From: Pleomorphomonas sp. T1.2MG-36
GTDB taxonomy: Bacteria > Pseudomonadota > Alphaproteobacteria > Rhizobiales > Pleomorphomonadaceae
Assembly (NCBI RefSeq): GCF_950100655.1
Contig: NZ_CATNLY010000045.1
Coordinates: 124,001-188,000, forward strand
Direction: 5' to 3'
Length of the DNA stretch: 64,000 nt
Position 1 is the stretch's first letter. Each line of letters begins with the position of its first letter. The notes below the pieces were generated by a model. The model saw nothing but the letters and a program-made list of their open reading frames with translations. It searched no databases and was not told the origin of the DNA. A program made the position numbers and the translations under genes. Shown one piece after another: positions 1 through 27,006 of the stretch.

Positions 1-571
1 GTTCAACATTGTCGGTCTTGGCGACAAGGCCGTCACCGAAAGCCGCGAGCGCGTCCGTGCCGCTCTGGCCGCTTCCGGCCTCGCCCTGCCTGCCAAGCGG
101 ATCACGGTCAATCTGGCGCCCGCCGATCTGCCCAAGGAAGGCAGTCACTACGACTTGCCCATAGCGCTCGGCCTCATGGTGGCGATGGGTGCCCTGCCGG
201 CCGACGCTCTTGGCGACTATATCGTGCTCGGCGAACTCTCCCTCGACGGGACCATCGCGCCGGTGGCCGGCGTGTTGCCGGCGGCAATCGCCGCCAACGC
301 CGAAGGATTGGGGTTGATGTGCCCGCGCGCCTCCGGGCCGGAAGCGGCCTGGGCCGACGGCGAGATGCCCATCCTTGCGCCCATCAGCCTGATCGCCGTC
401 GTCAACCACTTCAAGGGTACCCAAGTGCTGTCGCGGCCCGAACCGAAGGTGGCCGATGCCATGGCGATCCTTCCCGACCTCGCCGACGTCAAGGGTCAGG
501 AGAGTGCCCGGCGGGCGCTCGAAGTGGCGGCGGCCGGCGGACATAACCTGTTAGTCATATACGGCACATAA
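1..571 (+). pseudogene. comM: comM/yifB 5' part, interrupted by the island
   Basis: This is the N-terminal part of a YifB/ComM-type AAA+ protein (Mg-chelatase-like family, linked to branch migration during natural transformation). The frame is open from base 2 and the true start lies left of the window. The translated stretch shows the family's N-terminal domain, including FNIVGLGDKAV, SRERVRAAL and KGQESARRALEVAAAGGHN. The gene should then run into the Walker A loop, but after GGHN the frame enters foreign sequence and stops at 569-571. The missing 3' part, with Walker A, lies at 26095-27006 in a matching frame. Joining the halves at the ACATAA repeat gives GGHNMLMVGPPGSGKS with no lost base. 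The gene is therefore disrupted by insertion, not decayed. The truncated product lacks the nucleotide-binding loop and is probably inactive. Confidence 0.95.
541..546 (+). repeat. attL core repeat ACATAA
   Basis: Left copy of the 6-bp direct repeat shared by both island ends, within the comM codons for His-Asn. A further copy of the 9-bp string ACATAACCT starts at 566, 25 bp downstream of the one at 541, and could be part of the recombinase binding arm. The exact crossover dinucleotide cannot be read from one integrated copy. Confidence 0.8.
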
Positions 572-608: not shown

Positions 609-2291
609 ATGCCAAAGGCCTATAGTTACATCAGATTTTCGACTCCGGAACAACGTCTCGGCGACAGCCTCCGGCGCCAGCTAGAAGCCGCGCGCAACTA
701 TGCAGCGGAGCAAGGGCTGGAGCTGGACGAGAGTCTAAGAGACGAAGGTCGTTCGGCGTACAAAGGCAAACATCGCGATGACAAGGCTGCTCTCGGGTCC
801 TTTCTGAAAGCGGTCGAGAAGGGACGGGTTGAGCGCGGCAGCTACCTGCTCGTTGAAAGCCTCGACCGTCTTAGCCGTGAACAAGTGACAGTAGCTCTCC
901 GGCTCTTTTTGCACCTTATTGAACTCGGACTGACGATAGTCACTCTCGCCGACAAGCGCGTTTATAGTGACGCGTCGCTCCAAGCAAATCCCACCGAGCT
1001 CATCATTTCGATTGTAGTAATGATGCGTGCGCATGAGGAGTCGGAAACAAAGGGAAAGCGTGTAGGTGCCGCGTGGGCAAACAAACGAATTCTCGCGGAA
1101 ACCGAAGGTCGTGCGATGACCCGGATCTGCCCCGGATGGATGCAGCTAAAGGAAGGTCGATATGAACTCATTCCTGAGCGTGTCGATATCGTAAGACGGA
1201 TTCTGCGCGAGTGCATAGGAGGCTCAGGCACTCGCTCGATTGCCTCCGGGCTCAACTCCGACGGAGTTCAGACATGGGGAGTCGGCGGCAAGAAGGGTTC
1301 ACATTGGCACGACAGCTATGTGAAGAAAATCCTCGAAAACCCGGCTCTCGTTGGTGAGTACACCCCTCGCTCTCCACGCGCCGGCGGCACGGAAGCGACT
1401 TCGGGCGCAACGCTTGTCGGCTACTATCCGGCGGTCACCGACCGCGAAACGTGGTTATCGGCACGCGCAGCTATGAGGGCGCGTGCGACGTCATCGGTGC
1501 GTGCTCCGGCCGGACTTCACCGCAACGTTTTGAGTGGCTTGCTCAAGTGCCATGCTTGTGGCGGGGGACTTCATTATATTGATAAAGGCCGGGGGCCGAA
1601 GGCAGGCGCTCCCTATTTGCAATGCGGAAACAGCCTCATGAAGGGGGGCTGTACCGAGAAAGCGAAATATAACTACGAGTCTACCGAGTCGGCCTTGCTT
1701 ATGACGCTCGCTACGAACGCTGTCGATGTTCGTGACGAGACCGTCGATGTCGCGCCATTTATGGGAGCGGTCACTGACGCGCAGGCAACGGTCGAGCGCT
1801 TGCTAGACCTCGTGGCGACAGGTGTGACGTCCGGAGCAGCCGTCGCGCGCCGAATTGCAAAGGCCGAGGCAGACCTCGCCATCGCGCAAACGGCACTCGC
1901 TAAGGCTGAGGAACGCCGCGCACTCGCTGCTTTGCAACCCCTGCGACGGATCCACATCGACTCCGCAAAGGTGGCAATAGCCCTTAGAGAGCGACCTGAC
2001 GACAGAGAGTATAGGGCCGAGGTAGCTTCTCGAATCCGCGCTGTCATAAAGACCATAACTCTATCACCCTACAAACTTAGAGTATTACTAGCTGACGAAA
2101 CCACAGTAATTGAGGGGGTTGTTAATCTAAGCTATGCCGGTGTATTCAATTTAGCTATTAACAGATTCTCTAGGATGAACCCGGATATTCCGGGAGTACC
2201 GTCGAGAGGAATTAAGCTTATTCCGCCACGAATTAATACATGGGAAGTTATTGAAGAGTCAAATAGAGTGGACGCCGAAAAAGATGAGTGA
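609..2291 (+). CDS. Large serine recombinase (site-specific integrase)
   Basis: A 560-residue large serine recombinase, most likely the integrase that placed the island in comM. The N-terminal resolvase domain (about residues 1-150) begins MPKAYSYIRFSTPEQ; Ser11 is the expected nucleophile. A recombinase domain follows (about 170-260, with ERVDIVRRIL and the ENPALVGEY end). Next come a zinc-ribbon-like stretch with paired Cys (LKCHACGGGLHY, then later Cys residues around YLQCG) and a helical coiled-coil-like segment near residues 390-440. The start ATG lies about 60 bp inside the left attachment core, the usual place for such integrases. Its 3' end becomes AT-rich and codon-poor compared with the rest. 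No separate excision factor was recognised nearby. Family assignment is secure; its target in comM is inferred from position. Confidence 0.93.
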   Translation: MPKAYSYIRFSTPEQRLGDSLRRQLEAARNYAAEQGLELDESLRDEGRSAYKGKHRDDKAALGSFLKAVEKGRVERGSYLLVESLDRLSREQVTVALRLFLHLIELGLTIVTLADKRVYSDASLQANPTELIISIVVMMRAHEESETKGKRVGAAWANKRILAETEGRAMTRICPGWMQLKEGRYELIPERVDIVRRILRECIGGSGTRSIASGLNSDGVQTWGVGGKKGSHWHDSYVKKILENPALVGEYTPRSPRAGGTEATSGATLVGYYPAVTDRETWLSARAAMRARATSSVRAPAGLHRNVLSGLLKCHACGGGLHYIDKGRGPKAGAPYLQCGNSLMKGGCTEKAKYNYESTESALLMTLATNAVDVRDETVDVAPFMGAVTDAQATVERLLDLVATGVTSGAAVARRIAKAEADLAIAQTALAKAEERRALAALQPLRRIHIDSAKVAIALRERPDDREYRAEVASRIRAVIKTITLSPYKLRVLLADETTVIEGVVNLSYAGVFNLAINRFSRMNPDIPGVPSRGIKLIPPRINTWEVIEESNRVDAEKDE

Positions 2292-2302: not shown

Positions 2303-2824
2303 CTATTGTTCAGAGACATTTTGTTTAGGATCGACGACGGCCGGCAGTCGATCCGATGAGAGCAATTTCAGGAGAGACCGTGTTCCAATGCCTCGCGCAC
2401 GAAATAAGCGAGACGCAGGGGAAGCGGGGTAGCGGCGATCCTTAGTCGCGGCGGCGATTAGGCGGGCACCTGCAGCGCGCCATTCAGTGACGGTGCGCTT
2501 TTGCGAATTACGGATCGCGATGGCAAGGCGAGGCCAAGCATCGTCATCGATCGTAGTGAAAAATGCTTGGAGTTCGATGTCGCGGGCTACACTCATATTC
2601 GATCCACACCAGTCGCACCACGGCTGCGATGGCGTTCGGCGACAGCGAACAAGTTCGTCGGGGGCGGAATTTTTAGCGTCCGATTCGGTGATCGTCGTCC
2701 AGCCAACCCAGCCGCCGTCGAGAAACAGAACGGCTCGCTCCCAGCCTGAAACGGGCCGTCCGGATGCACGGCGGCCGACATAGATTCGGACCATATCGTC
2801 GGAGGCAGGCGTCGGCTTTTTCAC
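2303..2824 (-). CDS. Hypothetical protein downstream of the relaxase
   Basis: A 173-residue protein that I do not recognise. It starts at a GTG that overlaps the TGA of the relaxase C-terminal frame (GTGA), so it is probably translated by coupling to the relaxase. It contains one CDWC pair, several Trp residues near the N-terminus and a basic C-terminal half (KDRRYPAS, RLFRARGIGTRSLLKLL). It is soluble by appearance, with no signal peptide or membrane segment. It converges with the integrase gene, the two stops being 11 bp apart. Position suggests a mobilization accessory role, but nothing in the sequence proves that. Confidence 0.6.
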   Translation of the reverse strand: MKKPTPASDDMVRIYVGRRASGRPVSGWERAVLFLDGGWVGWTTITESDAKNSAPDELVRCRRTPSQPWCDWCGSNMSVARDIELQAFFTTIDDDAWPRLAIAIRNSQKRTVTEWRAAGARLIAAATKDRRYPASPASRLFRARGIGTRSLLKLLSSDRLPAVVDPKQNVSEQ

Positions 2825-4622
2825 GTCGGTCTCCGCTGCTCGTCCGGGGCGGCCTCGACCGTCGGCCTGGTGATCGAAGCGAGTGCTTCCGGATCAGCAT
2901 CAGGCTCGGCATGACCTTTCGCGCGCCAGCCGTCGAGTTCGGCGACGATGTCGATAGGGCGTTGCTTTGCCAGCTCGGCACGCTGATTGTCATCGAGATA
3001 GGAGCTGACGAATTTCCGCAAACCCGGTTCTAGTTTTCGCAGAGATTCGAGGTCGCCTTTCGCGGCGTTGATGAGCAAATCGGACTCGGACGCAACCCGG
3101 CGCACACCGGCTAAAATCTGCTCGTCGGCCGCCTTCTGAGCGACCTCGGCGGCCCACTGCTGTTTGAGGACGTCGGGTGCGATGTAGCCTATCACGGCCA
3201 CGTTCTGGCGCTGGCATTCGAGCCAAAGGCGCTCGCGAAACTCGTCTGGACCATGAGATTCAAGCTGCGCGCCCCATTCGTCCGCCGCTTTCTCTACGAG
3301 CGCCCGAACGGATTCATCACTGATAGAACCGTGGACGGTGACATAGTCGCCCGTGTCGTGCAGCCGGGATTCCGCAACTGAAACCCAGGCGCCGTCGGGT
3401 GCTTCGGTGACATCTTCGTAGCCGCGTTCTCTCCATGAATCCGCAATCCTCGTGATTGCGAATTCGGTGAGAGAACAGGGCGGCAGTCGGCCCTACGGCG
3501 TACGACAGCAGCTTTTTTCAGATGCTGGATGCCGCTCTCGCCGACGCCGATGTCCTCGGCAAGGGCTCGGGCGAGCGGCGTGGCTAGACGGTCTGGACCC
3601 CAGATGGTGATTTCTCGGCCGCGCGCCTCAACCCAACCGCCGTCGGTACACTGTATGCGGGTGCGGTCACGGCGGCGCACGTCGACTAAATTAATGTTTG
3701 AGGCGTAGGGGGCCGGATCAAAGTCTGGGAACCTGCTCTTCAGCAGGCCGACCTTGTAATCCGTTTTCGCTGCCTCGGTAGGAAGCTTGGGGAAACCGCG
3801 TTTTTGTTGAGACATCTCTTCCTCCAGTTTTTGCAGTTCGTTCAGGGTTTTTCGTTGCTCACGAATTGAAGTGACAACGGCAGTTCGACGGTCGTGCATC
3901 CGGCGACGGCGAACCGACGCCATCCTCTGCTCTCCAATTTGCGGTTCGGGTTCGCGCGGGTCATTGCGAGCGGCGTAGCTCCGGGCGTCGGCTCGGCGTT
4001 CGGAGCGAGTGTTGCGGAGCATGTTGTTGACGATCGTCGCCACGCGGGATCGCTCCGCCTTCAGCGCCTCGCCCTTCGTGCCGCCCTGCCGACCGCCGGA
4101 TTCAAATAGGTGGCCAAGGTCGGCGTTACGGACGGCCGCGAATCCAGTTTGGGTTGTGGGATCGAGCATGCGCGGCGTGAGCATGATGTGCGCGTGAGGT
4201 TGCGGCTCGCCATCCGCTCCCTTGGGGCAGTGGATCGCGACATCACAGACAGCCCCCGCCATAATGTATTTTTTCGTTACGGATTCGACGAACTCGCGCC
4301 ATCGATCGCGGGGCAGGTCGCGAGGGATGGACAACTCGACCTCGCGGGCGGTGACCGCATCTTTTCTTCGTTCTGCGGCCTCGACCCGGTTCCAAAGTTC
4401 AGAGCGGTCGTGAACCCAAGCTGGGGCGTCGGCAGGGGCAAGGATGAAACTTTCGACGACGTGGCGCTTGCGGCTGAAGTCGAATTCGCGGCCTGTCTGG
4501 GAGTTGGTCATTGCCGTTGCAGCGCGGTAGGCGGCGGCGGCGACGGCAGACCTGCCTTTCGAGCGCTGAAGGACCTTCACGCTCATATGGAAAAGAGTCT
4601 CGCTGGCGGGGAGGCTCGTCAT
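2821..4622 (-). pseudogene. mobA: MobA/MobL-family relaxase, frameshifted
   Basis: A relaxase of the MobQ (MobA/MobL) type, which nicks and covalently holds oriT DNA during mobilization. The N-terminal part shows the hallmarks: SVKVLQRSKGRSAVAAAAYR with the presumed catalytic Tyr, and the metal-binding PHAHIML. The frame stays good down to IQHLKKAAV near 3510, then becomes meaningless and stops at 3294-3296. Another minus-strand frame takes over with sensible protein (FAITRIADSWRERGYEDV onward), through 3201 to the TGA at 2821. A single indel between about 3465 and 3495 explains this, and an intact product would have about 600 residues. The start is placed at ATG 4622 (MTSLPASETLF); ATG 4586 (MSVKVL) is equally plausible. 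The GTGA overlap with the next gene supports the C-terminal frame as original. It is either a recent mutation or a sequencing error. Confidence 0.85.
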
Positions 4623-4626
4623 GGGC

Positions 4627-4760
4627 GGGCACTTAAGCGTCGGCCCATGACAGCCGATGACGGATTCGAGCGGTTGGAAGAACGCGAAAATCGTCCGTTC
4701 GAGGGGCAGTCGGTGCGGTGTTGGACTGCGGGGAAAACGGCGGGGCACTTAAGCGTCGGC
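4627..4760. repeat. 18-bp direct repeats with CTTAAGCG core upstream of the relaxase
   Basis: Identical copies of GGGCACTTAAGCGTCGGC lie at 4627-4644 and 4743-4760, 116 bp apart. The shared core CTTAAGCG also appears at the candidate nic region (4925-4932). They sit between the likely relaxase start and the oriT candidate, so they may bind the relaxase or a regulator. Confidence 0.7.
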
Positions 4761-4904: not shown

Positions 4905-4945
4905 AAGCTGCGTCACCTGTGACGCTTAAGCGCGCCTTTCAGGGA
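4905..4945 (+). other. oriT: Candidate oriT with inverted repeat and nic-like core
   Basis: Between the divergent relaxase and TraD-like genes lies a perfect inverted repeat, GCGTCAC-CT-GTGACGC (4910-4925), followed directly by TTAAGCGCGCCTTTC. The layout, a hairpin just 5' of a TAAGYGCGCC core, matches the RSF1010/MobQ oriT architecture, whose core I recall as TAAGTGCGCCCT. By analogy the nick would fall after about 4934. The match in both structure and sequence, next to a MobQ relaxase, makes this a good call, though the nick site is inferred. Confidence 0.72.
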
Positions 4946-5040: not shown

Positions 5041-5301
5041 ATGGTCGATTTGAGCGCACTGAGACAGCGAAAGGCCGACCTGGAATCAAGACTCGCGCAG
5101 ACGGAACAGGCGTTGAAGTCGGCTCGCCGGGCGGATGACAGCCGCCGGAAAATCGTCCTTGGCGGTGCCGTTTTGGCGGCGCTCCGGAACGGCGAAATCG
5201 ACGGATCGGTCCTGCGCGGTATCCTCGGCCGACATGTCACCGACCGGGATAAGAGGCTGTTCAGCGGCTCGGCACTCTCGATCGGGGAGACAGCGCAGTG
5301 A
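5041..5301 (+). CDS. TraD/MobC-like mobilization accessory protein
   Basis: An 86-residue protein with an N-terminal heptad-rich helix (MVDLSALRQRKADLESRLAQ) followed by DDSRRKIVLGGAVLAAL. The D-x-RRKI-x-LGG pattern is typical of the small TraD/MobC-like relaxosome proteins of rhizobial mobilization systems. Such proteins help the relaxase at oriT. A strong ribosome-binding site, GGGGAGGA, lies just upstream. It is divergent from the relaxase with the candidate oriT between them, and its TGA overlaps the GTG of the next small gene. The assignment rests on the short motif and the context. Confidence 0.75.
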   Translation: MVDLSALRQRKADLESRLAQTEQALKSARRADDSRRKIVLGGAVLAALRNGEIDGSVLRGILGRHVTDRDKRLFSGSALSIGETAQ

Positions 5302-5435
5302 GCTTCGACATCATGGCGGTCGCCGAACTCCTCGCGACACTGTTCGGAATCATCAGCGCATTGATGATTGTGTGCGTGCCGAGAAACGCTCCGAAAGCGG
5401 TTCGCCGAGTGGATATCGGGGGGGCGAGGCAATGA
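5298..5435 (+). CDS. Small single-pass membrane protein (45 aa)
   Basis: A 45-residue open frame that starts at GTG 5298, overlapping the stop of the TraD-like gene (GTGA), and ends in a TGA overlapping the ATG of the DotA-like gene (ATGA). The middle, AVAELLATLFGIISALMIV, is a clear membrane helix, and the C-terminus is basic (PRNAPKAVRRV). Four-base overlaps on both sides imply translational coupling and argue that it is a real gene. It could be a lipoprotein-like or entry-exclusion-like partner of the DotA/TraY protein, but no family was recognised. Confidence 0.7.
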   Translation: MSFDIMAVAELLATLFGIISALMIVCVPRNAPKAVRRVDIGGARQ

Positions 5436-7561
5436 GCATAATCGACATCACCGCTGCACCGGACCTGTTCAGATCGCTCCCAGCCTCCGATTGGTCAGGG
5501 AGGATGATCGACGGCATTTTCGGAACCGCGTCGGAAGCATCCTCGGTGTCGACGCTGCTCGAAATAATTGCCTCGGCTCTGGTGCTCATCGGCGCTCTGT
5601 TTTTGAGTTACGGCATACTCAGTGCGATTGTGGGAGCGGCGAGAACAGGGCGGCCGTTGTCGGATTCGACAAGCGGCGTGTGGGTGGCGTTACGACCCGT
5701 CGTCGGATTCGGAATGCTCGTTCCGATCGGCGCGGTGGGGCTATCCGGTGTGCACTATCTTGTAAAAGAAGTGGCAATTATTTCCGCAAATCTCGGCAAC
5801 GCGGTCGCCGTGCAATACGTTGAAAATGCGACGGTTTCCGGAAATTCCTCGTTGCCGATCAGCGGAGCGGGTCAGGCTCTCGTTTATGGACTGACACGCG
5901 CGGAGGTTTGCTCGGCAGTCCGGATTCAGGCTGGGCGAACACTCGGCGAAACCACGATCACAGCCGCACGGATTCCGGCTGCATCCGGATCGGTGATCCA
6001 GTCGGGGGAGCGGCGGTCGTGGTGGACGGGCGAGGTCACCGAGGCCGGGAAAACCAGTGGGTTTGCATGGGATTACGGTCCAGCGTGCGGGAGCATAACG
6101 GTTTCGAATCCTGAAAATTTCGGAGGTTTCGGCGAAACGCGGCGACAGGCTGTCGCTGGGGCTGTGGCTGCTATCCGAGATATGAAAATCGGCGACAACA
6201 TCGCTAATGTGATTGGTCGGACTCCCGGCGCAACATCAACGGATTCCGAAACGCTAGTGAAATCAATAGTTTCTGCATGGCGAGACAACGGAACGCTTGT
6301 AACCCAATTCGTTGAGCGGCTGAATCAAATTGCGGAAAGTTATGATCGCACGATTTCACAAGCCGCCCGATCGGCCGCGACAGCATCGGACTCCGGCCTC
6401 CGGCAAAAACTCGTTGAGCATGTGCGGTCGTGTGGCTGGCCTTGCGTCGGCGGGTATTACAGGATTCTAGGCACTCTGAATCTCGCGGCATCATCGACCG
6501 CGGCGGAAAATGCAACGGTGACGGCACCGGACGCGAAATCGTGGGGGCTCTACTCGTCCACTGTTGGCGCAGCGCTGAAACTCTTGGATAATCAAATACT
6601 TATTGAGGGAACGGAAGTCCGGTTGACGGCAAATGATCTGCGGACGGAGGCGGATGATGACGCGGAAACCACATTCTCCAAAATAACGGGAAGTATTACT
6701 CAACCACTGAAAGACTATTTTACGAGTTATGATGGTTTTTCGGCGGACCCGATTTCAGATCTCATGAATACCGGTAATCACCTATTGGTGGCATCCGAAA
6801 CGGCGTTCGGCGTTGGCGCGGCGGCGTCTGGAGGGTCCCACTTTTTCGGGTCCGCGGTGGGTGCGGTGTTCGATTTCTTCATGAGGGCGGGATGGCCTGC
6901 GATTGCAGCGGCGTATGGTGCCGGGGTCATGCTGCTCTATGTACTCCCACTAACGCCATGGATTTATGTGACATTTGCGTTTTTTGCATGGGCTCTCGAA
7001 TTGCTGGTGGCATCAATTGCGGTGCTGGTTTGGGCATTTTCGCACCTGCGGCTTGATGGCGGTGCCTTCGTGGATCGTGCGCAGGTGTTCGGCTACGGAA
7101 GCCTGTTCGTGTCGATTCTACTCCGTCCGGCCATCATCGTGATTGCATATGCGGCGGCAATTGCAATCGGTATAGTCGGTTTGAATTTCTTGCGTTTTTC
7201 GTTCTCGTTTGCATCCGATGCGGCAATATCCGGCTATACGCTTGGTGTATCGGGGGTATTAGTCTATGGAATACTCGCCATTGCAATCCAGTTCATGGCG
7301 TTCCATTTCATTTTCCGGTCGATACCATCCGCGCCGGAAAGGATCGGGCCGTGGCTTGGGTTGACGATCTCATCGTGGAGAGAGTCGGAGGGCGGCGCGG
7401 TGATCATGGCCGCAGTTGGCGGGCGGCTTGGCGGGATGGGGCACGGAGGGGTTCCGGGAGTCAAGGGGATCGGCGGCAAGGGGTCGGCGGGGGAGACGCC
7501 GATTCATGCCGGCGGCGCGGGGGCGTCGGCCGGGCCTGGGGCATCGAGACCGAGGGGATGA
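5432..7561 (+). CDS. DotA/TraY-like inner-membrane protein
   Basis: A 709-residue multi-pass membrane protein resembling DotA/TraY of type IVB (IncI/Dot-Icm) secretion systems. Near residues 45-70 the segment IIASALVLIGALFLSYGI is followed by GRPLSDSTSGVWVALRPVVG and GMLVPIGAVGLSG, the conserved N-terminal signature of this family. A long polar, presumably periplasmic region (about 120-460) comes next. Four or more hydrophobic helices follow in the last 250 residues, then a Gly-rich tail. The start is ATG 5432, coupled to the previous gene by ATGA overlap. No other type IVB component is present in the island, so it cannot build a machine alone. In IncI plasmids TraY determines entry-exclusion specificity, which makes a stand-alone copy interesting. 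Family confidence is good; function here is inferred. Confidence 0.78.
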   Translation: MSIIDITAAPDLFRSLPASDWSGRMIDGIFGTASEASSVSTLLEIIASALVLIGALFLSYGILSAIVGAARTGRPLSDSTSGVWVALRPVVGFGMLVPIGAVGLSGVHYLVKEVAIISANLGNAVAVQYVENATVSGNSSLPISGAGQALVYGLTRAEVCSAVRIQAGRTLGETTITAARIPAASGSVIQSGERRSWWTGEVTEAGKTSGFAWDYGPACGSITVSNPENFGGFGETRRQAVAGAVAAIRDMKIGDNIANVIGRTPGATSTDSETLVKSIVSAWRDNGTLVTQFVERLNQIAESYDRTISQAARSAATASDSGLRQKLVEHVRSCGWPCVGGYYRILGTLNLAASSTAAENATVTAPDAKSWGLYSSTVGAALKLLDNQILIEGTEVRLTANDLRTEADDDAETTFSKITGSITQPLKDYFTSYDGFSADPISDLMNTGNHLLVASETAFGVGAAASGGSHFFGSAVGAVFDFFMRAGWPAIAAAYGAGVMLLYVLPLTPWIYVTFAFFAWALELLVASIAVLVWAFSHLRLDGGAFVDRAQVFGYGSLFVSILLRPAIIVIAYAAAIAIGIVGLNFLRFSFSFASDAAISGYTLGVSGVLVYGILAIAIQFMAFHFIFRSIPSAPERIGPWLGLTISSWRESEGGAVIMAAVGGRLGGMGHGGVPGVKGIGGKGSAGETPIHAGGAGASAGPGASRPRG

Positions 7562-10155: not shown

Positions 10156-12192
10156 CTAGGCGGCAACGGACCACGAGTCGTCGTCCCACTGGGGCGGTTC
10201 GGATGGACTACCGTCCACTGACGACAACCACAATTCATGTTCGATCAACGAGACGACATCCTCTTCGTACTCTCCGTCGTCCAATGACTGACGGACAGCA
10301 TGAGACGACGGCGGCGATCGATCCGAGTCAGTGTGGAACGGAAGAACCGTGGGTATCGAGACAGCCTCCGGAGCATCGTGACTAGCTGAACCCTCATCCA
10401 GCGCTGTGGTGTGATGGGATGAGGAGCGAGCCGTGAAAAGGCCTGCTATTTTTCTAAGACCGTCTGTCACGGTGGTCTTACAGGCCTCGGAAACCTCGCT
10501 AACGTCGGACATCGCCGCCTCGAAATGTCGGAGAACCGTGCGATAAGCAATGCCTGCACGACGTGCAACGGCCGCCTTGGTGATCTCCGCGCCCTCGGCA
10601 CGAAGGGCGGCCACGGCCTCCCGTATCGCGTTGAGCGAGGCATCCCGACGAGTGCCTGCCGCATGCCGACCACCCGCAGCCTGGCGGTCGTGGAGCGATA
10701 GGCCACCAAGGGTCCCCCTGAGAACTCCCGGGTTTGCCGTCCGACGGCGTGCAGACGGATCGAAATGAAGCGCTGCCCAACGGCAAACGGAGTGCAGCAT
10801 CCCCATTGCTTTGCGTGGCGGGACGTTTGTCATTGCGTGGCGAGCATCGTGCCCTAGCGCGGTGGCAAACGCTTGTGCGAGGTCGTCGCCTGTCAGCGCG
10901 CCCCGTTTGTCTCCCTCGGCGATCCACTGGCGAGCGAGGGACCAACAGGCCGCCGTTGCCTCTTTGAAAAAAGCGTTGCTCTGGCATTGATCGATGCCGA
11001 CCGCCGCGCCGCGAACGGCCGTTTGCCGTTCGGCCATGGCAGTCTCGTCCTCGCCAAGCCAAGGTTCAAGCAGCACCATAAGATCGGACAGACACAATGG
11101 ATCACGCGAATTCAGGACGGCAACCGACCAATGCGGCGACAATGGATTCTTGACGCGCATGGAATTGCTCAAACCACCGACATCGCCGCCGACAGGTATG
11201 CAAGCGGCCGTCAGCGCGCGGGCCACCGCATGATAAAGGCGCTGAGGACCCGGTAATGCCTTGGAATCAAATCGAATTCTGGACTTCTCGGGTAGCAACC
11301 AAATGAAATGCGGCCGGACGATTCTGCCGTCCAATAGCTCATCCCCGACGACGAGATGAGGTAGCAAATCCACGGACTCGAACGCGTCGATCAGGGTGAG
11401 GCGCATCCCATCCCATGATGCAAAAACACGATCGCAATCGATCCGGATGAAGCCCCTCACACTTTTCTGTCCCTCGACGTAGACTTGGTCGAGCCCCAAC
11501 AACTTGCTTCCGACGGCCCGCGTGAATTCCTTGGTACCGACCATAAGCGATTGTTTTAACTCTGTTTCATCCGCATCGCGCTTGCCGGGGCGAGCCTTCG
11601 GCAGGCAGCTAGCGAATAATTTTAGAAGCGGATGCTCGTCGCTCCGAAGACCCTGATAGACGAATGCCGACCGCTCCCGCCTCGTGGCGGGGTCCTCGCC
11701 GCCCGGCCAACGGTAGCCCTCCGTTAGGCGGTCAACGACGGCCTCGCGGCGATCCCTTAACGCGTCGCGGATATCGAGTTCCTTATTTACGCGGCGTCGG
11801 ATGCCCTCATCCGTCGCCATCGGAAGCTTGCGACGGGCTTCGGCGGCGAGATCGGCTTTTAGGAGATCGTAGCTGGCGAGATGCCAAGCTTCCGAGATCG
11901 AGTCCGCCGCTCCCGATGCAAGCAACTCGCGCGCCGCCTCACGGATGAGAGGTTCCCGGATAGCCCTTTCGGCCTCTTGCACAAGACGAACATTTTGGCG
12001 GCGGGCGCGGCGACAGTCAGCCTTTTTCAAGCGGGCGGCATCGGCAACACCGATGAAATCGACAGTCCCCGTGCCGATGGAACCTGCCGCACCATCCGTC
12101 CATGTGCGAACAGGACGGGGCCAAATTTGTTGACAAGTTTGGGTAGAGAAGGGCGCCGTCTGGCTGGGTGCGTATCCCAGCGACGGGATCAC
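10156..12192 (-). CDS. Plasmid-type replication protein (primase/replicase-like)
   Basis: A 678-residue protein with a central region resembling the plasmid Replicase/primase family. It has an acidic stretch FIRIDCDRVFASW, RPHFIWLLP, and the family-like SNSMRVKNPLSPHW (ColE2-Rep-type proteins show a similar R-x-KNP...W motif). The N-terminal third is charged and helical. The C-terminal part has a helix-turn-helix (EITKAAVARRAGIAYRTVLRHF) and an acidic disordered tail. It starts at GTG 12192. Its presence on an integrated island suggests the excised circle can replicate, as in some integrative elements. The family call is by motif memory; an exact subfamily is not claimed. Confidence 0.65.
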   Translation of the reverse strand: MIPSLGYAPSQTAPFSTQTCQQIWPRPVRTWTDGAAGSIGTGTVDFIGVADAARLKKADCRRARRQNVRLVQEAERAIREPLIREAARELLASGAADSISEAWHLASYDLLKADLAAEARRKLPMATDEGIRRRVNKELDIRDALRDRREAVVDRLTEGYRWPGGEDPATRRERSAFVYQGLRSDEHPLLKLFASCLPKARPGKRDADETELKQSLMVGTKEFTRAVGSKLLGLDQVYVEGQKSVRGFIRIDCDRVFASWDGMRLTLIDAFESVDLLPHLVVGDELLDGRIVRPHFIWLLPEKSRIRFDSKALPGPQRLYHAVARALTAACIPVGGDVGGLSNSMRVKNPLSPHWSVAVLNSRDPLCLSDLMVLLEPWLGEDETAMAERQTAVRGAAVGIDQCQSNAFFKEATAACWSLARQWIAEGDKRGALTGDDLAQAFATALGHDARHAMTNVPPRKAMGMLHSVCRWAALHFDPSARRRTANPGVLRGTLGGLSLHDRQAAGGRHAAGTRRDASLNAIREAVAALRAEGAEITKAAVARRAGIAYRTVLRHFEAAMSDVSEVSEACKTTVTDGLRKIAGLFTARSSSHHTTALDEGSASHDAPEAVSIPTVLPFHTDSDRSPPSSHAVRQSLDDGEYEEDVVSLIEHELWLSSVDGSPSEPPQWDDDSWSVAA

Positions 12193-16382: not shown

Positions 16383-18452
16383 TCAACTCGGGAAGCCTAA
16401 GTCACGTAGACGGCCTAGCAGCCCAAGCGCGTGCTTCGATTGACCATCCGTTGGAAGTTGACGAGGCATTGAGGCGCAGACTTGTAGAATCTGCATGTCC
16501 TTCGGCGTCAAACGCTTCTTGAGACGCCCCCATTCAAGTACGCGATTCCAGTGGTCCGCGCCGAGCGTAACGACTTCTGTCTGGGCATTGATGCCGTCTG
16601 TCAGACTCTTCGCCGCATGAGCTTCACGCTTTGCCGCCTTCGTGGCGTCGATCAGCGCGCGACAACTGTCAAAATCGTCGTCGTAATCGAGATGTCTGGA
16701 TTTCAGACCATTCCAGCAAGCTTGCTGCTTGGCCCATTCGGACATGTTGCGAATGCCGGCCGGAGGATGGGTAATCGCATCGTGAGCTGCTTCCGCGGCA
16801 ACCATCAGCGCACGGGCTAAAGGCTCGGAAACCGCTTGGCGGCGCCAGATGGAATCGAGGTCCAGCACCTCCTTTTCGCTTTCGGCGTCGTGAAACACCT
16901 TAGCCATGGCATAGGTAACTATGTTGGCGCGATAACCGCCTTCGTACCAAGGCTGCTTCGGTATATCTGCCTCAAGCTGTCGGAATATGATTGCCTTTGC
17001 AATCAGGCGCCTGAACCAGAGTTCGTCATACTTCGTGTCACTCTTCGACCAGGCTTCACCGATGGCCTTCGCGAATTCGGCAAAGTTCTTCTGCGCGCCC
17101 CTAGACACAAGATATGGCATCCCGGTCGCGGAAAACTCGAACTTGGCCAGATCGGTCTTGCTGACGAATTGCGCCTTCGGGTACTCCAGATCGAATTTCT
17201 TCTGTTGTGGTGTTGTCAGCTTGCTACGAGCATTGATGAACTGCCCACGCGAGCGCTCGTAGAACCACTTGCTGTCATGCCGTTCGCCGTCACGCGCCGC
17301 AAAGATGACGGTCCGGGAGAGCTGCTCCATACGGACATAAAAGGGTTGGTTCGAGAAGAAGTCAGCAGCGTTCACCTTGTTCTGAGTGTTGGCGTACTCC
17401 GAAATCCTGGGAACGATCTCTTCCGACCGCTCGGGTGGCACCACCGTCAACTTCATCTGGACAAAGACGCGATCAAGCTGCTCGGCCGCCAACTTCAGCC
17501 CGGCATGAATTGAGCCTGTAGTCTGTGCTCCATTGACGATTTGCAGGTTGCTGATCGCTGCAACGGCCAATCCAGAATCCGACTGGATCAGACTGACCTC
17601 GTCAGCCGTCGCCGACAATCCATTATTGTACGGAAAGAAGAGCTCAGGCTCTTCGCGGATCGTCTTTTGGATACCCTTGTTGGTCTTGGCCCGAGCCTGG
17701 AGGAAGGATCTGACGTTAGCCTCAAGCAGTCGCGCTCCCCACCGATCATAGATTTCGGCCAGTTGCCGCCCGGGCACTATCATCAGATAGCTTTCCAATG
17801 CCGCCCCATTTTGCGAAGCCTTGAGAGCCGGCAAGGCACCACCGAAATCTGCGGCGAAGTCGATGACCATGTCCTCGCGCGCCAACCCGGAGCGATCGAA
17901 ACGCTCGAAACGGGCCAGATCCCACACCGACCAGGTTATCGGCACTTCCCCCGCATCTGCCAGCTTCACCACATCGTCACGGCTGCTGTAGCGACGGTTG
18001 GAAACGAGAACCAGCTTGACCTTGGTGATGTGCGGCCAAGTAGCAATTATGAGGTCGGATATCTGGAAGCCAGGATCGACTTCGTTCAGTGCATCCCGGA
18101 ATTCCGGCTTGCGTGCCTGCTTGAGAAAGCGGATCAGGGGATTCAGGATTGAGGGAACATCCCCCTTGCTAAAGCTCTGCACCTCATCGCTATCATGAAA
18201 GTCGCACACGATCAGACCGAGGACGCCCTCGCTTTCGCGGGGATCGCCCGCATAACCGTCTACCCGTATCCGTTTGTTCCCGTCACCAGACTGATGAAAC
18301 GCCCTGTCCGCAGTTTCGAGCTCCCCGGCAGCCGTCAAACGCTCGGCCATGCGGTCGAAGAATGCCTCGACCATCATGATGCCACTCGCGTCCGCCTCCC
18401 GCCGAATGTCAGCCATCAGGTTCTGGTGATATTCTTCCAGTTCATCGCTCAT
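16383..18452 (-). CDS. AIPR (abortive infection phage resistance) family protein
   Basis: A 689-residue AIPR-family protein. The diagnostic block is LFFPYNNGLSATADEV preceded by VRSFLQARAKTNKGIQKTI and followed by LQIVNGAQTTGSIHAG. It starts at ATG 18452, which overlaps the stop of the PD-(D/E)XK gene (ATGA). AIPR proteins occur repeatedly with Z1, GHKL ATPase and methyltransferase genes in predicted restriction systems, as here. The biochemical activity is not established. It has no membrane segment and should be cytoplasmic. Confidence 0.88.
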   Translation of the reverse strand: MSDELEEYHQNLMADIRREADASGIMMVEAFFDRMAERLTAAGELETADRAFHQSGDGNKRIRVDGYAGDPRESEGVLGLIVCDFHDSDEVQSFSKGDVPSILNPLIRFLKQARKPEFRDALNEVDPGFQISDLIIATWPHITKVKLVLVSNRRYSSRDDVVKLADAGEVPITWSVWDLARFERFDRSGLAREDMVIDFAADFGGALPALKASQNGAALESYLMIVPGRQLAEIYDRWGARLLEANVRSFLQARAKTNKGIQKTIREEPELFFPYNNGLSATADEVSLIQSDSGLAVAAISNLQIVNGAQTTGSIHAGLKLAAEQLDRVFVQMKLTVVPPERSEEIVPRISEYANTQNKVNAADFFSNQPFYVRMEQLSRTVIFAARDGERHDSKWFYERSRGQFINARSKLTTPQQKKFDLEYPKAQFVSKTDLAKFEFSATGMPYLVSRGAQKNFAEFAKAIGEAWSKSDTKYDELWFRRLIAKAIIFRQLEADIPKQPWYEGGYRANIVTYAMAKVFHDAESEKEVLDLDSIWRRQAVSEPLARALMVAAEAAHDAITHPPAGIRNMSEWAKQQACWNGLKSRHLDYDDDFDSCRALIDATKAAKREAHAAKSLTDGINAQTEVVTLGADHWNRVLEWGRLKKRLTPKDMQILQVCASMPRQLPTDGQSKHALGLLGRLRDLGFPS

Positions 18453-19426
18453 GACCGCGGTCCTATCCCCCCAAGACTTGCACACACACTGGCCCAATCG
18501 GATCTGAAGGGACTGCAAGCCGACAACGCAATTGCATAGGTGACGTCAGAGACTCCGAGCGGCACTGGGCCTGCGATCCTCGGAAAGCCATCTGATACCG
18601 AATGAAACTCGGGTACGGAAGCGATCCACCGCCAAGCTGAGTAGTCGTGCATGGCATCGTAGCCTGCGTCAGCGAGATGCAGGTCCCACTGCATTATGGC
18701 TGACGGCTCGACCCTTTCGAGCACGCCGGTCACTTCTGCCACAATATCCGTCAGCGTTCGACCGTGCGGCAGCTGAACCCTGTCGATGGCCAAGACCGCA
18801 AGCCAGAGATGATGCCCGGCGACATCGGCCAACTGGAATTCGCTGGAAATCTTCACGAACGGCTGCGACGCCCCCCTCCGTGCCTTGACTTCGATACAAT
18901 CGGCCTCGAACTCGAAGTCCTTTGGTGCTCCGGACGGGCCTGTCCACGCGGCAAGCGCTGCCTTCGGTCCGAGTTCGGCGATCAACAGCTGGAGGACCTC
19001 GATTTCGCCGATCAGACCCTTCTGCGCTTCCTCAGACAGGACCTCGGATTTGCCGCCGCGCAGCAGATAATGCCAGCGGAATGAACGACCGATCGCCCTC
19101 TCCAGCGCTTCCCGTTCAGTTGGCGCAGGTTCGGCTGCGGCCATCAAATCGCGGCAAAATGTTTCGAACAGTTCGATCTGGGCTCTGTCTCTCAGTCGGA
19201 TATAAAGGATTGGTCCACCAGGCAACGTCTGAAACCGGATCTCCAGATTTCCCAGTCGAGGCAAATCGAGGGGCGGATCAGGCAGTTGAGATAGCTGCAA
19301 GACGAGCGTCGCATCGGCGCGCGGCATGACCGCCCAGAACCAGTTCCAGCGAGCGGCGACGGAAACACGGCGCGTATCTGTTTGCCCAGCTTCGAGACCA
19401 GACCAGGGAGTATCACTCGGTATCAC
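18449..19426 (-). CDS. PD-(D/E)XK motif protein (DUF4420 type)
   Basis: A 325-residue protein of the PD-(D/E)XK nuclease-fold group usually annotated as 'PD-(D/E)XK motif protein'. Key stretches are KGLIGEIEVLQLLIAELG, then FEFEADCIEVKARRG, where the E-x-K pair follows an acidic strand. It starts at ATG 19426, overlapping the end of the Z1 gene by 14 bp, and its stop overlaps the AIPR start. It is a good candidate for the cutting subunit of the system, together with Vsr. Confidence 0.85.
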   Translation of the reverse strand: MIPSDTPWSGLEAGQTDTRRVSVAARWNWFWAVMPRADATLVLQLSQLPDPPLDLPRLGNLEIRFQTLPGGPILYIRLRDRAQIELFETFCRDLMAAAEPAPTEREALERAIGRSFRWHYLLRGGKSEVLSEEAQKGLIGEIEVLQLLIAELGPKAALAAWTGPSGAPKDFEFEADCIEVKARRGASQPFVKISSEFQLADVAGHHLWLAVLAIDRVQLPHGRTLTDIVAEVTGVLERVEPSAIMQWDLHLADAGYDAMHDYSAWRWIASVPEFHSVSDGFPRIAGPVPLGVSDVTYAIALSACSPFRSDWASVCASLGGIGPRS

Positions 19427-22157: not shown

Positions 22158-23653
22158 TCGTCCTCCCTGACCTCCAAGGTAGTCTCGACGAGGCGCTGGG
22201 TATCCTCCCAAGCGGACCGAAAAGGATCAACGTCCTTCATGAGTGCCATGATTTCATCGATGCTCTTTCGAGCGGTCATCAAGACAGAAAGCGTCGCCCT
22301 CACCGCCTGAGCCAGGGTGTCTTCGTCCACGCGGTCCGGAACGATCTGTTCGGCAGAACCGGCCATGTCGGCATGAAGTGCTTCAACAGGAAGCGATGCG
22401 CCCACCAGAACAATGCAGTTGAAGAATTCTCGACGGAGATGTTCCGGCAGGCGTGTGGCGAACTCGGCGAACGCGGGGTGTTCGACATTAGGGCGATATC
22501 GAATTTGGCCTTCCGCCTGAATGCGATGCCACATTGGCAGGCGGTCCTGGTCGACCAGCTTCTGCCCACGCTTGCGATATGTGCGTTTCGAGCCGTCCTG
22601 AATACGCTCGATCACTTTCTTCAGTCGCTCCCGCACTAATGGTGGTAGCTGCGCGGATGACTTCTTGACGTCAATCTTCCAGTCAGCATCCATCTGGTTC
22701 GATATGTCGATCCTGACGCGCGATAGCTTCGTGATCTCGGAGTGCCTACAGAGGCCAAACCACGTCCCGTGAATGATCAGCCTATTGCCCCGGTACAAAT
22801 AGAAACCCTGGGATTTTTGATGCCCTTCTGGCCCGCCGATCTCATCCCATTCCGCCTTGCTCATCTGCTTGTGGTGCGGAAGGGTGTAGCTCTGGATCTC
22901 TACCGTTCTGCCCCCCAGAGTCAGCGACTCGTCAGGACCGTGGATCGTCGCTGGGTTCTTGCGGGCAAACGGATCAAGCGGACGAATCTGGCGCCCGTTC
23001 AGAAGAATGCGGAGCGGCTTCGCCGCTTCCATGAAGCGGTGGAAGACGAGGCGAAGATGGTACTCGGCCTCAGCGACTCTCTGGTTGATGAGTTCGGCTC
23101 GCTTCTCTGGACTGAAGGAACCGCTCCCCTCCAATCGATCGAGCTTCTGCCAGAGAACAAGCGTGCCGCTATCTCCCAGATGATCGATCGCAGAAATCTC
23201 AGGCAGGTTGTCCGGGAGCTGAATGGCCCAATCGTTCCGCCTTGCCACATCGTCCAGATCCCAAACGGCGACTGATGTGCCACCCGATCGTCGCGAGATG
23301 ACCGTTAGCCGTCGACATTGCGAGAAGCTCGCACTCTTCAGACCAAGACCGAACCGACCAAGATCAGGTTCGTCACGAGTCGCGAGCGGGTTGCGACTGC
23401 CTGGTCGCATCGCGGCAACGAGCTCTACTTCAGACATCCCATCGCCGTCATCGATGATGGCGATATAAGGCTCCTCTGAAAACACCTCCGTTAGGATCCG
23501 AACGGTCCGGGCGTTTGCAGTGATCGAATTGTCGATGATGTCGGCAATGGCGGTATCAAGCGAATAACCGATATCCCGAAGGCCTTCGATCAGCGCACTT
23601 GCGTGAGGTGTGGCGTCAGCCCGGCGCACATTGTTCTCGTTTAGCATCGTCAT
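22154..23653 (-). CDS. GHKL-type (MutL/MORC-like) ATPase
   Basis: A 499-residue GHKL ATPase. The N box is LDTAIADIIDNSITANA, the G1 box IIDDGDGMSEVE and the G2 box GRFGLGLKSASFSQ. A middle region resembles an S5-like transducer domain (residues 200-330). Its C-terminal third is helical, without a clear nuclease motif. It lies 60 bp after the methyltransferase and overlaps the Z1 gene start by 4 bp. This matches the MutL/MORC homologues that Iyer, Abhiman and Aravind (2008) predicted in restriction-modification operons. It could act as an ATP-driven clamp around DNA. Confidence 0.9.
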   Translation of the reverse strand: MTMLNENNVRRADATPHASALIEGLRDIGYSLDTAIADIIDNSITANARTVRILTEVFSEEPYIAIIDDGDGMSEVELVAAMRPGSRNPLATRDEPDLGRFGLGLKSASFSQCRRLTVISRRSGGTSVAVWDLDDVARRNDWAIQLPDNLPEISAIDHLGDSGTLVLWQKLDRLEGSGSFSPEKRAELINQRVAEAEYHLRLVFHRFMEAAKPLRILLNGRQIRPLDPFARKNPATIHGPDESLTLGGRTVEIQSYTLPHHKQMSKAEWDEIGGPEGHQKSQGFYLYRGNRLIIHGTWFGLCRHSEITKLSRVRIDISNQMDADWKIDVKKSSAQLPPLVRERLKKVIERIQDGSKRTYRKRGQKLVDQDRLPMWHRIQAEGQIRYRPNVEHPAFAEFATRLPEHLRREFFNCIVLVGASLPVEALHADMAGSAEQIVPDRVDEDTLAQAVRATLSVLMTARKSIDEIMALMKDVDPFRSAWEDTQRLVETTLEVREDE

Positions 23654-23713
23654 ATTCGCAGCGGATTGATTCCACCTTGGCGCGAACCTGAATGCTTTAC
23701 AAGCAGGACAAAT

Positions 23714-25255: not shown

Positions 25256-25320
25256 ACCGGGCCTCTCGAATTCTGAACTGCGGCTGTATACCAGGTCCGT
25301 CAGGGAAGGCTAGGAGGCAA

Positions 25321-25788
25321 ATGGCCGATATTGTCGATCAGACAATCCGTTCAAGGATGATGTCTGGAATCCGGGGCAAGGATACCAAACCCGAGCTGTT
25401 GTTGCGCAAGGCACTCCATGCTCGCGGCTTCCGTTACAGCCTGCATTCGAGCAAACTGCCGGGCAAGCCCGACATTGTCCTCCCGAAATACAACGCGGTT
25501 GTCTTCGTGCACGGATGTTTCTGGCATCGCCACGAAGGATGTCGCTACGCCACATCTCCATCCACTCGAACGGATTTCTGGAATGCCAAGTTCGAGGCAA
25601 ACATTGAGCGAGACGAGACCGTCCAGAGGGCACTTCAAGCCTCCCACTGGAGAGTGGCAGTGGTTTGGGAGTGCGCAATCCGAAAGCCAACCATGCGAGC
25701 AATGGTAGTTGATACGCTGTGTAGTTGGCTGCGTGACGGAAATGGGAGCGCCAGCATTAGCCTCGGCGAAGGTGATATTCCGCACTAG
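25321..25788 (+). CDS. vsr: Very short patch repair (Vsr) endonuclease
   Basis: A 155-residue Vsr family nickase, which repairs T:G mismatches produced by deamination of 5-methylcytosine. Matching segments are RMMSGIRGKDTKPELLLRK, LPGKPDIVLPKYNAVVFV with the catalytic Asp, and HGCFWHRHEGC with zinc ligands. A strong AGGAGG ribosome-binding site precedes ATG 25321. It is divergent from the cytosine methyltransferase, as expected for a repair partner. In this operon type it may act in repair, in restriction, or in both. Confidence 0.92.
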   Translation: MADIVDQTIRSRMMSGIRGKDTKPELLLRKALHARGFRYSLHSSKLPGKPDIVLPKYNAVVFVHGCFWHRHEGCRYATSPSTRTDFWNAKFEANIERDETVQRALQASHWRVAVVWECAIRKPTMRAMVVDTLCSWLRDGNGSASISLGEGDIPH

Positions 25789-26099
25789 AATATAAAACAA
25801 ACACATCATCTGGTCGGCTTTGTGCTCACCACATAGGAAGGTGGCAAGTAGAATCATCCCTCATTCCTAGATCGGATGGCGTATGCCGGCCGAGTTCGCG
25901 GCGACCTTCCCGCCCCGTTGGGCTCTGGCGCTGCGCCAGACGAAAGGCTCCGCGCCGACGCCCGACATCACTGTCCGTCAGGACAAACCCAACGCCGGAA
26001 ACGAACTCAGAACTGGATAACTCCTAGGGGCAACGTCACTGTGGGTAACATGCGAGATAACCTTCTGCCATTATGAGGCACTCTAACGACTTTTATGCC
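25789..26099. other. Right-end spacer of the island
   Basis: No gene is evident. It contains a tight hairpin, TCTGGCGC-T-GCGCCAGA (near 25925-25941), which may end transcription from vsr, and CACC/GGTG arms near 25840. The last 40 bp lead to the attachment core and supply an ATG (26095) in frame with the comM 3' part. Confidence 0.6.
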
Positions 26100-27006
26100 A
26101 CATAATATGTTGATGGTCGGTCCTCCCGGTTCCGGCAAGTCGATGCTGGCGAGCCGCCTGCCGTCCATCCTGCCGGCGCTGACGCCGCAGGAACTCCTGG
26201 AAATCTCGATGATTGCCTCGATTGCCGGCACGCTCGCCGACGGACGGCTGACCGATCGGCGGCCGTTTCGTGCGCCACATCACTCGGCCTCCATGGCGGC
26301 CTTGGTCGGCGGTGGCGTGCGGGCGAAACCCGGCGAGATCTCGCTGGCCCATCGCGGCGTGTTGTTCCTCGACGAACTGCCGGAGTTCAATCCGGCCGTG
26401 CTTGACAGCTTGCGCCAGCCGCTTGAGACGGGCGACGTGGTCATTGCCCGCGCCAACAACCGCGTCACCTACCCGGCCCGCTTCCAGTTGATCGCCGCGA
26501 TGAACCCTTGCCGCTGCGGCCTTGCCGGCACACCCGGCCACACCTGCCGTCGTGGTCCGGCCTGCGCCGCCGAATATCAGGAGCGTATCTCCGGGCCATT
26601 GCTGGACCGCTTCGACCTCACGGTCGAGGTGCCCGCCGTCTCGGCATCCGACCTGATCGGCGCGCGGCGGACCGGCGAGCCATCTTCAACGGTCGCGGCC
26701 CGCGTCGCGGCGGCGCGCGCCATCCAGTCCGAACGCTATCTCTCGCTCGGTCTCGAGTCTTCGGTCACCAACGCCACGGCGCCGGCGGCCGTCATCGACG
26801 GCGTTGCCGAGCCCGATGGCGCCGGGCTGGCGTTGCTGAAGCAGGCCGCAGAGCGGCTGTCTCTTTCGGCGCGCGGCTACCACCGCGTGCTCAAGGTTGC
26901 TCGAACGCTCGCCGATCTCGACGGTTCGGACAGTGTTAGCCGCCTTCATGTCGGGGAAGCTCTCGCCTATCGTACCGGTTCCGACCGAAAGGCTCGGGCC
27001 GCCTGA
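26095..27006 (+). pseudogene. comM: comM/yifB 3' part
   Basis: The C-terminal part of the interrupted ComM/YifB AAA+ protein. After three island-derived codons it continues HNMLMVGPPGSGKSMLASRLP with the Walker A loop. It then has the Mg-chelatase-type block FRAPHHSASMAALVGGG, Walker B VLFLDELPEFN, a zinc-finger-like CRCGLAG...HTCRRG insert, and the C-terminal helical domain (LSARGYHRVLKVARTLADL). The ATG at 26095 comes from the island end, so a truncated product with an intact ATPase could in principle be made, but no good ribosome-binding site is seen. Without the N-terminal domain it is unlikely to function. Confidence 0.95.
26100..26105 (+). repeat. attR core repeat ACATAA
   Basis: Right copy of the 6-bp repeat at the junction with the comM 3' part. 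Replacing the sequence right of 546 with the sequence right of 26105 rebuilds an uninterrupted comM frame, which is the main evidence that this is the attachment core. Confidence 0.8.

What the first reader, a model, noticed from the sequence alone, without database searches (positions are those of the whole stretch)
5298..7561. A lone DotA/TraY-like protein on a mobilizable island may remodel a helper conjugation machine
Seen: a coupled pair (45-aa membrane protein and a 709-aa DotA/TraY-like protein) sits directly after the TraD-like mobilization gene, with no other type IVB genes anywhere in the island. Known: in IncI plasmids TraY is the determinant recognised in entry exclusion, and the SGI1 island carries its own copies of helper mating-pore proteins. 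Inference: this element may swap its own TraY-like subunit into a helper's type IVB channel, to escape exclusion or widen its partners; the 45-aa protein could be its own exclusion or assembly factor.
Basis: partly seen in the sequence, partly recalled or inferred. Interest (0 to 1): 0.78.

Follow-up and report, generated by a model that had tools for sequence, protein, structure and literature searches.

The report
Lone DotA/TraY on mobilizable islands
A DNA island that probably cannot transfer itself carries one isolated piece of another element's transfer channel beside its own mobilization genes, and related islands do the same, which suggests that they customise the channel they borrow.

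Summary
The 709-aa protein at 5432-7561 is a real DotA/TraY (VirB6-class) protein and a lone one: two other type IVB markers, DotH and DotI, were not found in the whole host genome. It belongs to a conserved mobilization module: MobQ relaxase, candidate oriT, TraD-like gene, dotA. The module recurs in a second island of the same genome, in Pleomorphomonas oryzae and in a distant single-contig genome whose island splits comM at the same place. The conserved coupled pair is traD-dotA (ATGA overlap in those three). The 45-aa ORF lies in a 134-bp insertion seen only in the window and has no homologue but itself in the protein database. In 397 sampled Hyphomicrobiales genomes, 7 of the 10 with DotA over cut-off lack DotH and DotI. 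Lone proteins are not one clade; another lone pair sits beside MOBP relaxases and groups with a Martelella type IVB TraY. dotA is under purifying selection (rough dN/dS 0.10-0.15). Channel remodelling is the best single explanation, but no type IVB helper was found, and the host holds a Trb-like plasmid instead. It would be a type IVB counterpart of SGI1 TraG and the IncP-island TrbL. The 45-aa exclusion/assembly idea is not supported.

The parts
155..571 (+). Interrupted 5' part of comM (left flank of the island)
   Evidence: ChlI and start of Mg_chelatase domain; reading ends in ..AAAGGHNLL before the island
609..2291 (+). Large serine recombinase, presumed integrase
   Evidence: Resolvase, Recombinase and Zn-ribbon domains; same three domains in the recombinase at the same comM place in G627
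2303..2824 (-). 173-aa ORF of unknown function that goes with the relaxase
   Evidence: Similar by tblastx in C1, P. oryzae and, in pieces, G627; no family
2824..3480 (-). Relaxase, C-terminal stretch, in another frame than the N-terminal part
   Evidence: tblastn of the C1 relaxase: residues 423-641 match here, frame -1
3474..4748 (-). MobQ-type relaxase, N-terminal part with the MobA_MobL domain (ORF 3294-4748)
   Evidence: PF03389 E 2.5e-47; NF041496 MobQ E 2.3e-53, 180.9 bits, under its cut-off of 200
4627..4760 (.). Two identical 18-nt direct repeats (4627-4644 and 4743-4760) upstream of traD
   Evidence: the repeat finder; a looser 2-mismatch pattern scan is not beyond chance
4910..4936 (+). 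Candidate oriT: inverted repeat GCGTCAC-CT-GTGACGC followed by TTAAGCGCGCC
   Evidence: Same motif in 3 of 3 Pleomorphomonas copies, not found by the same pattern in 12 other loci scanned; folds better than shuffles, z -2.1. Likeness to MobQ nic sites is recalled, from no call
5041..5301 (+). TraD-like relaxosome gene, 86 aa
   Evidence: Weak Pfam TraD; alignment to Martelella TraD; present in C1, P. oryzae and G627
5298..5435 (+). 45-aa ORF with a hydrophobic stretch, inside a 134-bp net insertion between traD and dotA; judged not part of the conserved module
   Evidence: traD-to-dotA start distance 391 bp here, 257 bp in C1 and in P. oryzae; no homologue but itself
5432..7561 (+). dotA/traY, 709 aa, VirB6-class protein
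   Evidence: TIGR04346 E 5.1e-59; profile match to DotA chain 9ngy E 3.7e-9
26095..27006 (+). 3' part of comM (right flank of the island)
   Evidence: Mg_chelatase and Mg_chelatase_C domains; reading resumes ..MLMVGPPGSGKS

Best explanation
The gene is the channel-gate part of an integrative mobilizable element's mobilization module. Shown: it is a DotA/TraY protein, the VirB6-class inner-membrane subunit; in three related copies its start overlaps the stop of a TraD-like gene next to relaxase and candidate oriT; it is kept by selection; lone copies also occur beside relaxases of another family; DotH and DotI were not found in these hosts. Inferred: when a type IVB conjugative plasmid enters the cell, the island's TraY is built into that plasmid's channel in place of, or mixed with, the plasmid's own. 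That would favour export of the island's relaxosome and change the surface read by a recipient's exclusion protein, as SGI1 TraG does with IncC channels. The 45-aa ORF is an incidental insertion.
For: Family match. Lone: no DotH or DotI in G000 and 8 other genomes. Conserved module in two islands of G000, in G009 and in G627; relaxase next to lone dotA in 8 of 12 lone loci. Purifying selection. Lone proteins not one clade: 5 label changes, all forced by well supported branches, without rows of unknown context. A MobQ TraA/TraC/TraD set together with type IVB genes exists. Precedents with VirB6-class subunits: SGI1, GISul2, IncP island. TraY is read by ExcA.
Against: No type IVB helper found in the host or in the 13 other genomes of the genus searched. 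The conjugation set recognised in the host is Trb-like. Window-clade proteins keep fewer type IVB consensus residues than 25 of 26 type IVB members. The direction of the label changes on the tree is not shown, and long branches make single places unsure. The window's relaxase frame is broken. The AlphaFold model is too poor to test the fold.
Confidence: 0.45

Rival explanations
1. The lone DotA/TraY works with another helper type, such as the Trb-like system already in the cell, at the coupling step: it fills the gene position where related MobQ modules keep the coupling protein and docks or gates the relaxosome, without entering a type IVB channel.
For: Host contig C54 carries a Ti-type TraA relaxase and a VirB4-family gene. 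In a Klebsiella plasmid and in the Martelella plasmid the gene after the TraD-like gene is a coupling protein. Window-clade proteins have drifted from the type IVB consensus.
Against: DotA/TraY is the VirB6-class part of type IVB machines, not a coupling protein. 6 of 9 lone hosts have no VirB4-family match. Other lone proteins (both of G567, and G110) keep the type IVB consensus well (43-46 of 48).
Confidence: 0.17
2. It is a weapon or shield: a lone gate subunit that poisons the channel of incoming type IVB plasmids (fertility inhibition), protecting the island's host or the island's niche.
For: The island also carries a MzaB-E-like defence set and methylases; partner genes are missing.
Against: Its start overlaps traD beside relaxase and candidate oriT in C1, P. 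oryzae and G627, a transfer setting rather than a defence setting.
Confidence: 0.13
3. It is a leftover of a decayed type IVB element, kept by chance.
For: The relaxase of this copy is frameshifted; lone hosts have no other type IVB marker tested.
Against: dN/dS 0.10-0.15 between three copies (dS is high, so rough); intact ORFs and coupling kept down to 37% identity; the same single gene kept in more than one lineage.
Confidence: 0.1
4. It acts alone as an export pore or in another membrane role without any conjugative helper.
For: Retained in 6 of 9 lone hosts without DotH, DotI or a VirB4-family match.
Against: Nothing known to me works so; the link with relaxases fits helper use better.
Confidence: 0.05

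Closest known systems
SGI1 with IncC plasmids (TraG, TraH, TraN)
   Same: Mobilizable island with its own VirB6-class channel subunit (TraG), shown to replace the helper's and to overcome exclusion (abstract of PMC5389848; TraG called a VirB6 homologue in PMC5704250)
   Different: F-type channel, three subunits, no canonical relaxase; here type IVB family, one subunit, own MobQ relaxase; function not tested
IncP island of Burkholderia glumae and GISul2
   Same: Island with a VirB6-class subunit (TrbL); the IncP island also has its own relaxase (section 11 and passages of PMC5704250)
   Different: Trb family with VirB5-class TrbJ and a TrbK or small TrbK-placed protein; here no VirB5-class gene was recognised and the small ORF is not conserved
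IncI-type TraY/ExcA and the Martelella type IVB plasmid
   Same: Same protein family; MobQ TraA/TraC/TraD set on the Martelella plasmid
   Different: These plasmids carry further type IVB genes; the island does not
Small MobQ plasmid CP137453 of Klebsiella
   Same: MobQ relaxase, divergent TraD-like gene, then one T4SS gene
   Different: That gene is a VirD4-type coupling protein, not DotA/TraY

Membership tests
DotA/TraY protein family (TIGR04346) | Profile score over the curated cut-off over the length of the model | tested here: met
   200.5 bits against 100, model positions 2-656
DotA/TraY protein family (TIGR04346) | Membrane helices at both ends with a long soluble middle | tested here: met
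   Hydropathy only
DotA/TraY protein family (TIGR04346) | DotA fold | tested here: inconclusive
   AlphaFold2 mean pLDDT 43.9; no fold search run
DotA equivalog of effector systems (NF033886) | Score over cut-off 500 | tested here: not met
   68.8 bits
Complete type IVB conjugation system | DotH and DotI homologues in the genome | tested here: not met
   No match in G000
Integrative mobilizable element | Own site-specific recombinase and a defined target gene | tested here: met
   Serine recombinase; comM split at the same place in the window and G627
Integrative mobilizable element | Own relaxase | tested here: met
   MobA_MobL domain intact, but the reading frame is interrupted after it; uninterrupted in C1 and P. 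oryzae ORFs
Integrative mobilizable element | oriT | tested here: inconclusive
   Conserved inverted repeat and motif; no nicking test
Integrative mobilizable element | Excision and helper-dependent transfer | not testable with these tools
   Needs mating assays
Islands that remodel a helper channel (SGI1 kind) | Carries a VirB6-class subunit without the rest of the channel | tested here: met
Islands that remodel a helper channel (SGI1 kind) | A helper with a matching channel | tested here: inconclusive
   None in the genus sample; possible kinds on rhizobial plasmids
Islands that remodel a helper channel (SGI1 kind) | Subunit shown to replace the helper's | not testable with these tools
   Needs complementation
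Exclusion protein (ExcA or TrbK kind) for the 45-aa ORF | Conserved small protein linked to the VirB6-class gene | tested here: not met
   Absent at the junction in C1, P. oryzae and G627; no homologue but itself

The most novel reading that the evidence does not exclude
Mobilizable elements of Alphaproteobacteria have more than once kept or captured just one gene of the type IVB channel, the VirB6-class gate TraY, and wired it into the relaxosome operon where conjugative MobQ plasmids keep the coupling protein. Each element thus brings a private gate that turns a passing type IVB channel into its own exporter and hides it from that plasmid's exclusion system.
Probability: 0.32. Interest if true: 0.82.

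Novelty: new variant of a known kind. Interest (0 to 1): 0.6.

Why it matters
Channel remodelling by mobilizable islands is shown for an F-type helper (SGI1) and proposed for Trb-type helpers (GISul2, IncP island). A type IVB version that carries only the gate subunit would say that this one subunit can by itself decide substrate preference or exclusion. It also offers a natural test set: intact lone TraY genes next to relaxases in environmental bacteria.

Tried and rejected
Structure route: AlphaFold2 on 11 relatives gave mean pLDDT 43.9, so no fold search was run. Viral contigs: 43 pattern hits, none a relative. Genome-contig scan: one relative, P. oryzae. The 45-aa ORF as a TraX-like or exclusion partner was considered and dropped: absent from the three other copies whose junction I could read; the DNA of the other close relatives (P0003, P0004, P0007-P0012) was not seen. 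Pfam gives DotA no family (best E 0.49). Relaxase: none shown near lone dotA of G110, Microvirga or the 9-kb G567 contig, and only a weak Mob_Pre match (E 0.019) beside G709; only chosen ORFs were scanned there. DotA matches under the cut-off in G451, G616 and G704 were not pursued. DotI was not searched in G611 and G710; plasmid records were tested for DotH only, 6 of them. Microvirga counts as lone only because its plasmid lacks DotH; the rest of that genome was not seen. L097 was grouped as type IVB on PLSDB's MPF_I typing; L098 and L099 as unknown.

Tree: the first count (47 rows; lone needs 10 changes, 175 of 500 shuffles as low) was inflated by rows of unknown context lying inside the window's clade. 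Without those 9 rows it is 5 changes, all forced, 0 of 500 shuffles as low, so lone proteins are clustered but not one clade. After this I lowered the novel-case probability from 0.35 to 0.32. Not in the tree: P0011 (573 aa), the partial DotA of G045, G104 and G105, and G378 (my stretch for it, L062, lay beyond its DotA genes). In one search a wrong ORF was taken for G611 and replaced before the tree. P0011 and P0012 were left out.

Papers: no report of a lone DotA/TraY on mobilizable elements was seen in the listings; the phrase cannot match a name written with a slash, so this is a weak test. The paper of Yue et al. on DotA-IcmX is not held; I know it through a passage of PMC12857230.

Full report
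WHAT IS THERE. The 709-aa ORF at 5432-7561 is a DotA/TraY family protein (TIGR04346, 200.5 bits, E 5.1e-59). A profile of 11 relatives finds the solved DotA chain 9ngy at E 3.7e-9. Hydropathy shows membrane helices at the N-terminal end, a long soluble middle and a C-terminal membrane cluster. It lies in an island of about 25.5 kb that splits comM, with a large serine recombinase, a MobQ-type relaxase and cargo that includes a Y-family DNA polymerase, cytosine methylases and a MzaB-E-like defence set. The one named relative found in the genome-contig scan is Pleomorphomonas oryzae.

LONE STATUS. DotH (PF12293) and DotI (PF11393) have no match in the host genome. In a sample of 397 genomes of the order, DotA is over its cut-off in 10: 7 of them (G000, G009, G024, G567, G627, G706, G709) lack both markers and 3 (G045, G611, G710) have DotH. 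In a sample of 385 genomes of the class, 17 have DotA and 3 of these (G000, G099, G110) lack both markers. Of the 24 genomes tested for both, 9 lack both and 15 have both. Nearness alone would mislead: on two Bosea megaplasmids DotA and DotH lie about 136 and 104 kb apart, which is why whole genomes were used.

THE MODULE. A second island in the same genome (contig C1) and one in P. oryzae carry the same block: relaxase on one strand; candidate oriT; TraD-like gene and dotA on the other. DotA there is 79% and 76% identical to the window's. The P. oryzae island has a tyrosine-type integrase gene. G627, a single-contig genome of another family, has an island in comM, broken at the same place, with a recombinase of the same three domains, and the same block at lower identity (DotA 37%). 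G099 has a MobQ relaxase, a small gene that aligns with the TraD-like gene as a tblastx piece (32%) but matches no family, one more gene, then dotA. In C1, P. oryzae and G627 the traD stop and dotA start overlap as ATGA. In the window a net insertion of 134 bp separates them (start-to-start 391 bp against 257 bp) and holds the 45-aa ORF, which overlaps both neighbours by 4 bp. That ORF is absent from the three other junctions and matched only itself in 5.77 billion proteins. The conserved pair is therefore traD-dotA, not 45-aa-dotA. The two 4-bp overlaps leave room for the ORF being translated here.

SELECTION. Between the three Pleomorphomonas copies dN/dS of dotA is 0.13, 0.10 and 0.15; of the relaxase N-part 0.19, 0.25 and 0.21; of traD 0.27, 0.23 and 0.19. 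dS is 0.7 to 1.8, so the ratios are rough.

RECURRENCE. On a tree of 38 DotA proteins of known context (12 lone, 26 type IVB) the lone label needs 5 changes, all forced by well supported branches, against 10.3 in shuffles (0 of 500 as low): lone proteins are clustered but not one clade. Changes may be gains or losses and several long branches are unsure. An earlier tree with 9 rows of unknown context gave 10 changes, which I set aside as inflated. The clearest separate case is G024 and G706, sister to the Martelella type IVB TraY (100/99 in both trees), whose dotA lies beside a PF03432 (MOBP-type) relaxase with, in G024, a NikA/MobC-type gene; by tblastn, type IVB-family genes of Shinella, Aminobacter, Sinorhizobium and Martelella plasmids are the top matches of the G024 protein. 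Relaxases lie within 6.2 kb of lone dotA in 8 of 12 lone loci: five PF03389 (window, C1, P. oryzae, G627, G099) and three PF03432 (G024, G706, one of two G567 loci). In the other four none was shown.

HOW IT MAY WORK. DotA/TraY is the VirB6-class part of type IVB systems; with IcmX, DotA forms a central pentameric gate in Dot/Icm (passages of PMC12857230; table in PMC12624023). In IncI plasmids ExcA recognises TraY, through different segments in R64 and R621a (passage of PMC12365149), and excA and traY both vary among otherwise similar IncI1 plasmids (passages of PMC8004404). SGI1 carries TraN, TraH and TraG, which replace the helper's; TraG is needed for transfer between IncC-bearing cells (abstract of PMC5389848). 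The review PMC5704250 calls TraG a VirB6 homologue and describes GISul2 and the IncP island with TrbL (passages and section 11). The simplest reading is that this island brings its own gate for a type IVB helper. A possible helper kind exists: the Martelella plasmid has a TraA/TraC/TraD set and DotG, DotH, DotI, IcmT and DotA/TraY genes. Among nine close relatives, residues 241-320 are among the more variable stretches and the C-terminal membrane cluster the most conserved, as one would expect of an exclusion-read middle, but this is weak evidence; both ends also vary.

WHAT SPEAKS AGAINST IT. No type IVB helper was found: of the 14 genomes of the genus only G000 and G009 have DotA, both lone. 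The conjugation set recognised in the host lies on the 105-kb contig C54: a Ti-type TraA-like relaxase (PF03389, 1145-aa frame) and a VirB4-family gene (PF03135); the other trb, traG and repABC names are my reading of ORF order and starts, not a family search. Six of nine lone hosts have no PF03135 match. The window protein keeps 34 of 48 type IVB consensus residues (0.71) against 0.60 to 0.98 in leave-one-out, only the R. leguminosarum protein being lower; other lone proteins range from 29 (G627) to 46 (G567) of 48, and the type IVB set is unevenly sampled. The window relaxase is frameshifted, so this copy may need another relaxase in trans, for instance that of C1; a sequencing error is not excluded.

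THE SLOT. In an 8.8-kb Klebsiella plasmid reached through the TraD-like gene the order is MobQ relaxase, TraD-like gene, VirD4-type coupling protein; in the Martelella plasmid it is TraA, TraC, TraD, coupling protein. In the island the gene after traD is dotA. The module seems to offer one place for a channel-facing protein, filled by a coupling protein in some elements and by the gate here. This is inference and motivates the first rival.

VERDICT. Real, conserved and found in more than one lineage; ordinary as a protein family, unusual in its setting. New variant of a known kind (islands that carry a VirB6-class subunit), in a type IVB form that I did not see described in the listings, which is a weak test.

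Noticed in passing
window 2824-4748: The relaxase reading frame is interrupted at about 3474-3480 relative to the C1 and P. oryzae copies; the MobA_MobL domain is intact.
   Followed up: partly
L003 (G000:C1:419500-439400): A second, about 75-80% similar island of the same family in the same genome, not in comM as far as fetched, with uninterrupted relaxase, traD and dotA ORFs.
   Followed up: partly
L090, L092-L096 (G000:C54): A 105-kb plasmid-like contig with a Ti-type TraA-like relaxase and a VirB4-family gene in what looks like a trb operon: a possible resident helper.
   Followed up: partly
window 16383-25788: MzaB-E-like defence genes, a cytosine methylase and a Vsr gene as island cargo.
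   Followed up: no
L089 (9672-12169) with L049 (16738-17691): Two divergent islands with related serine recombinases split comM at the same place, just before the Walker A stretch.
   Followed up: partly
L065, L067, L064, L055: In some other Alphaproteobacteria DotA genes stand in tandem (three adjacent ORFs in G296 and in G195, two in G278, two in G367).
   Followed up: no
window 10156-12192: A 678-aa ORF kept in the three Pleomorphomonas islands (76-79% by tblastx) without any Pfam, NCBIfam or PADLOC match; from its place perhaps a replication gene.
   Followed up: no
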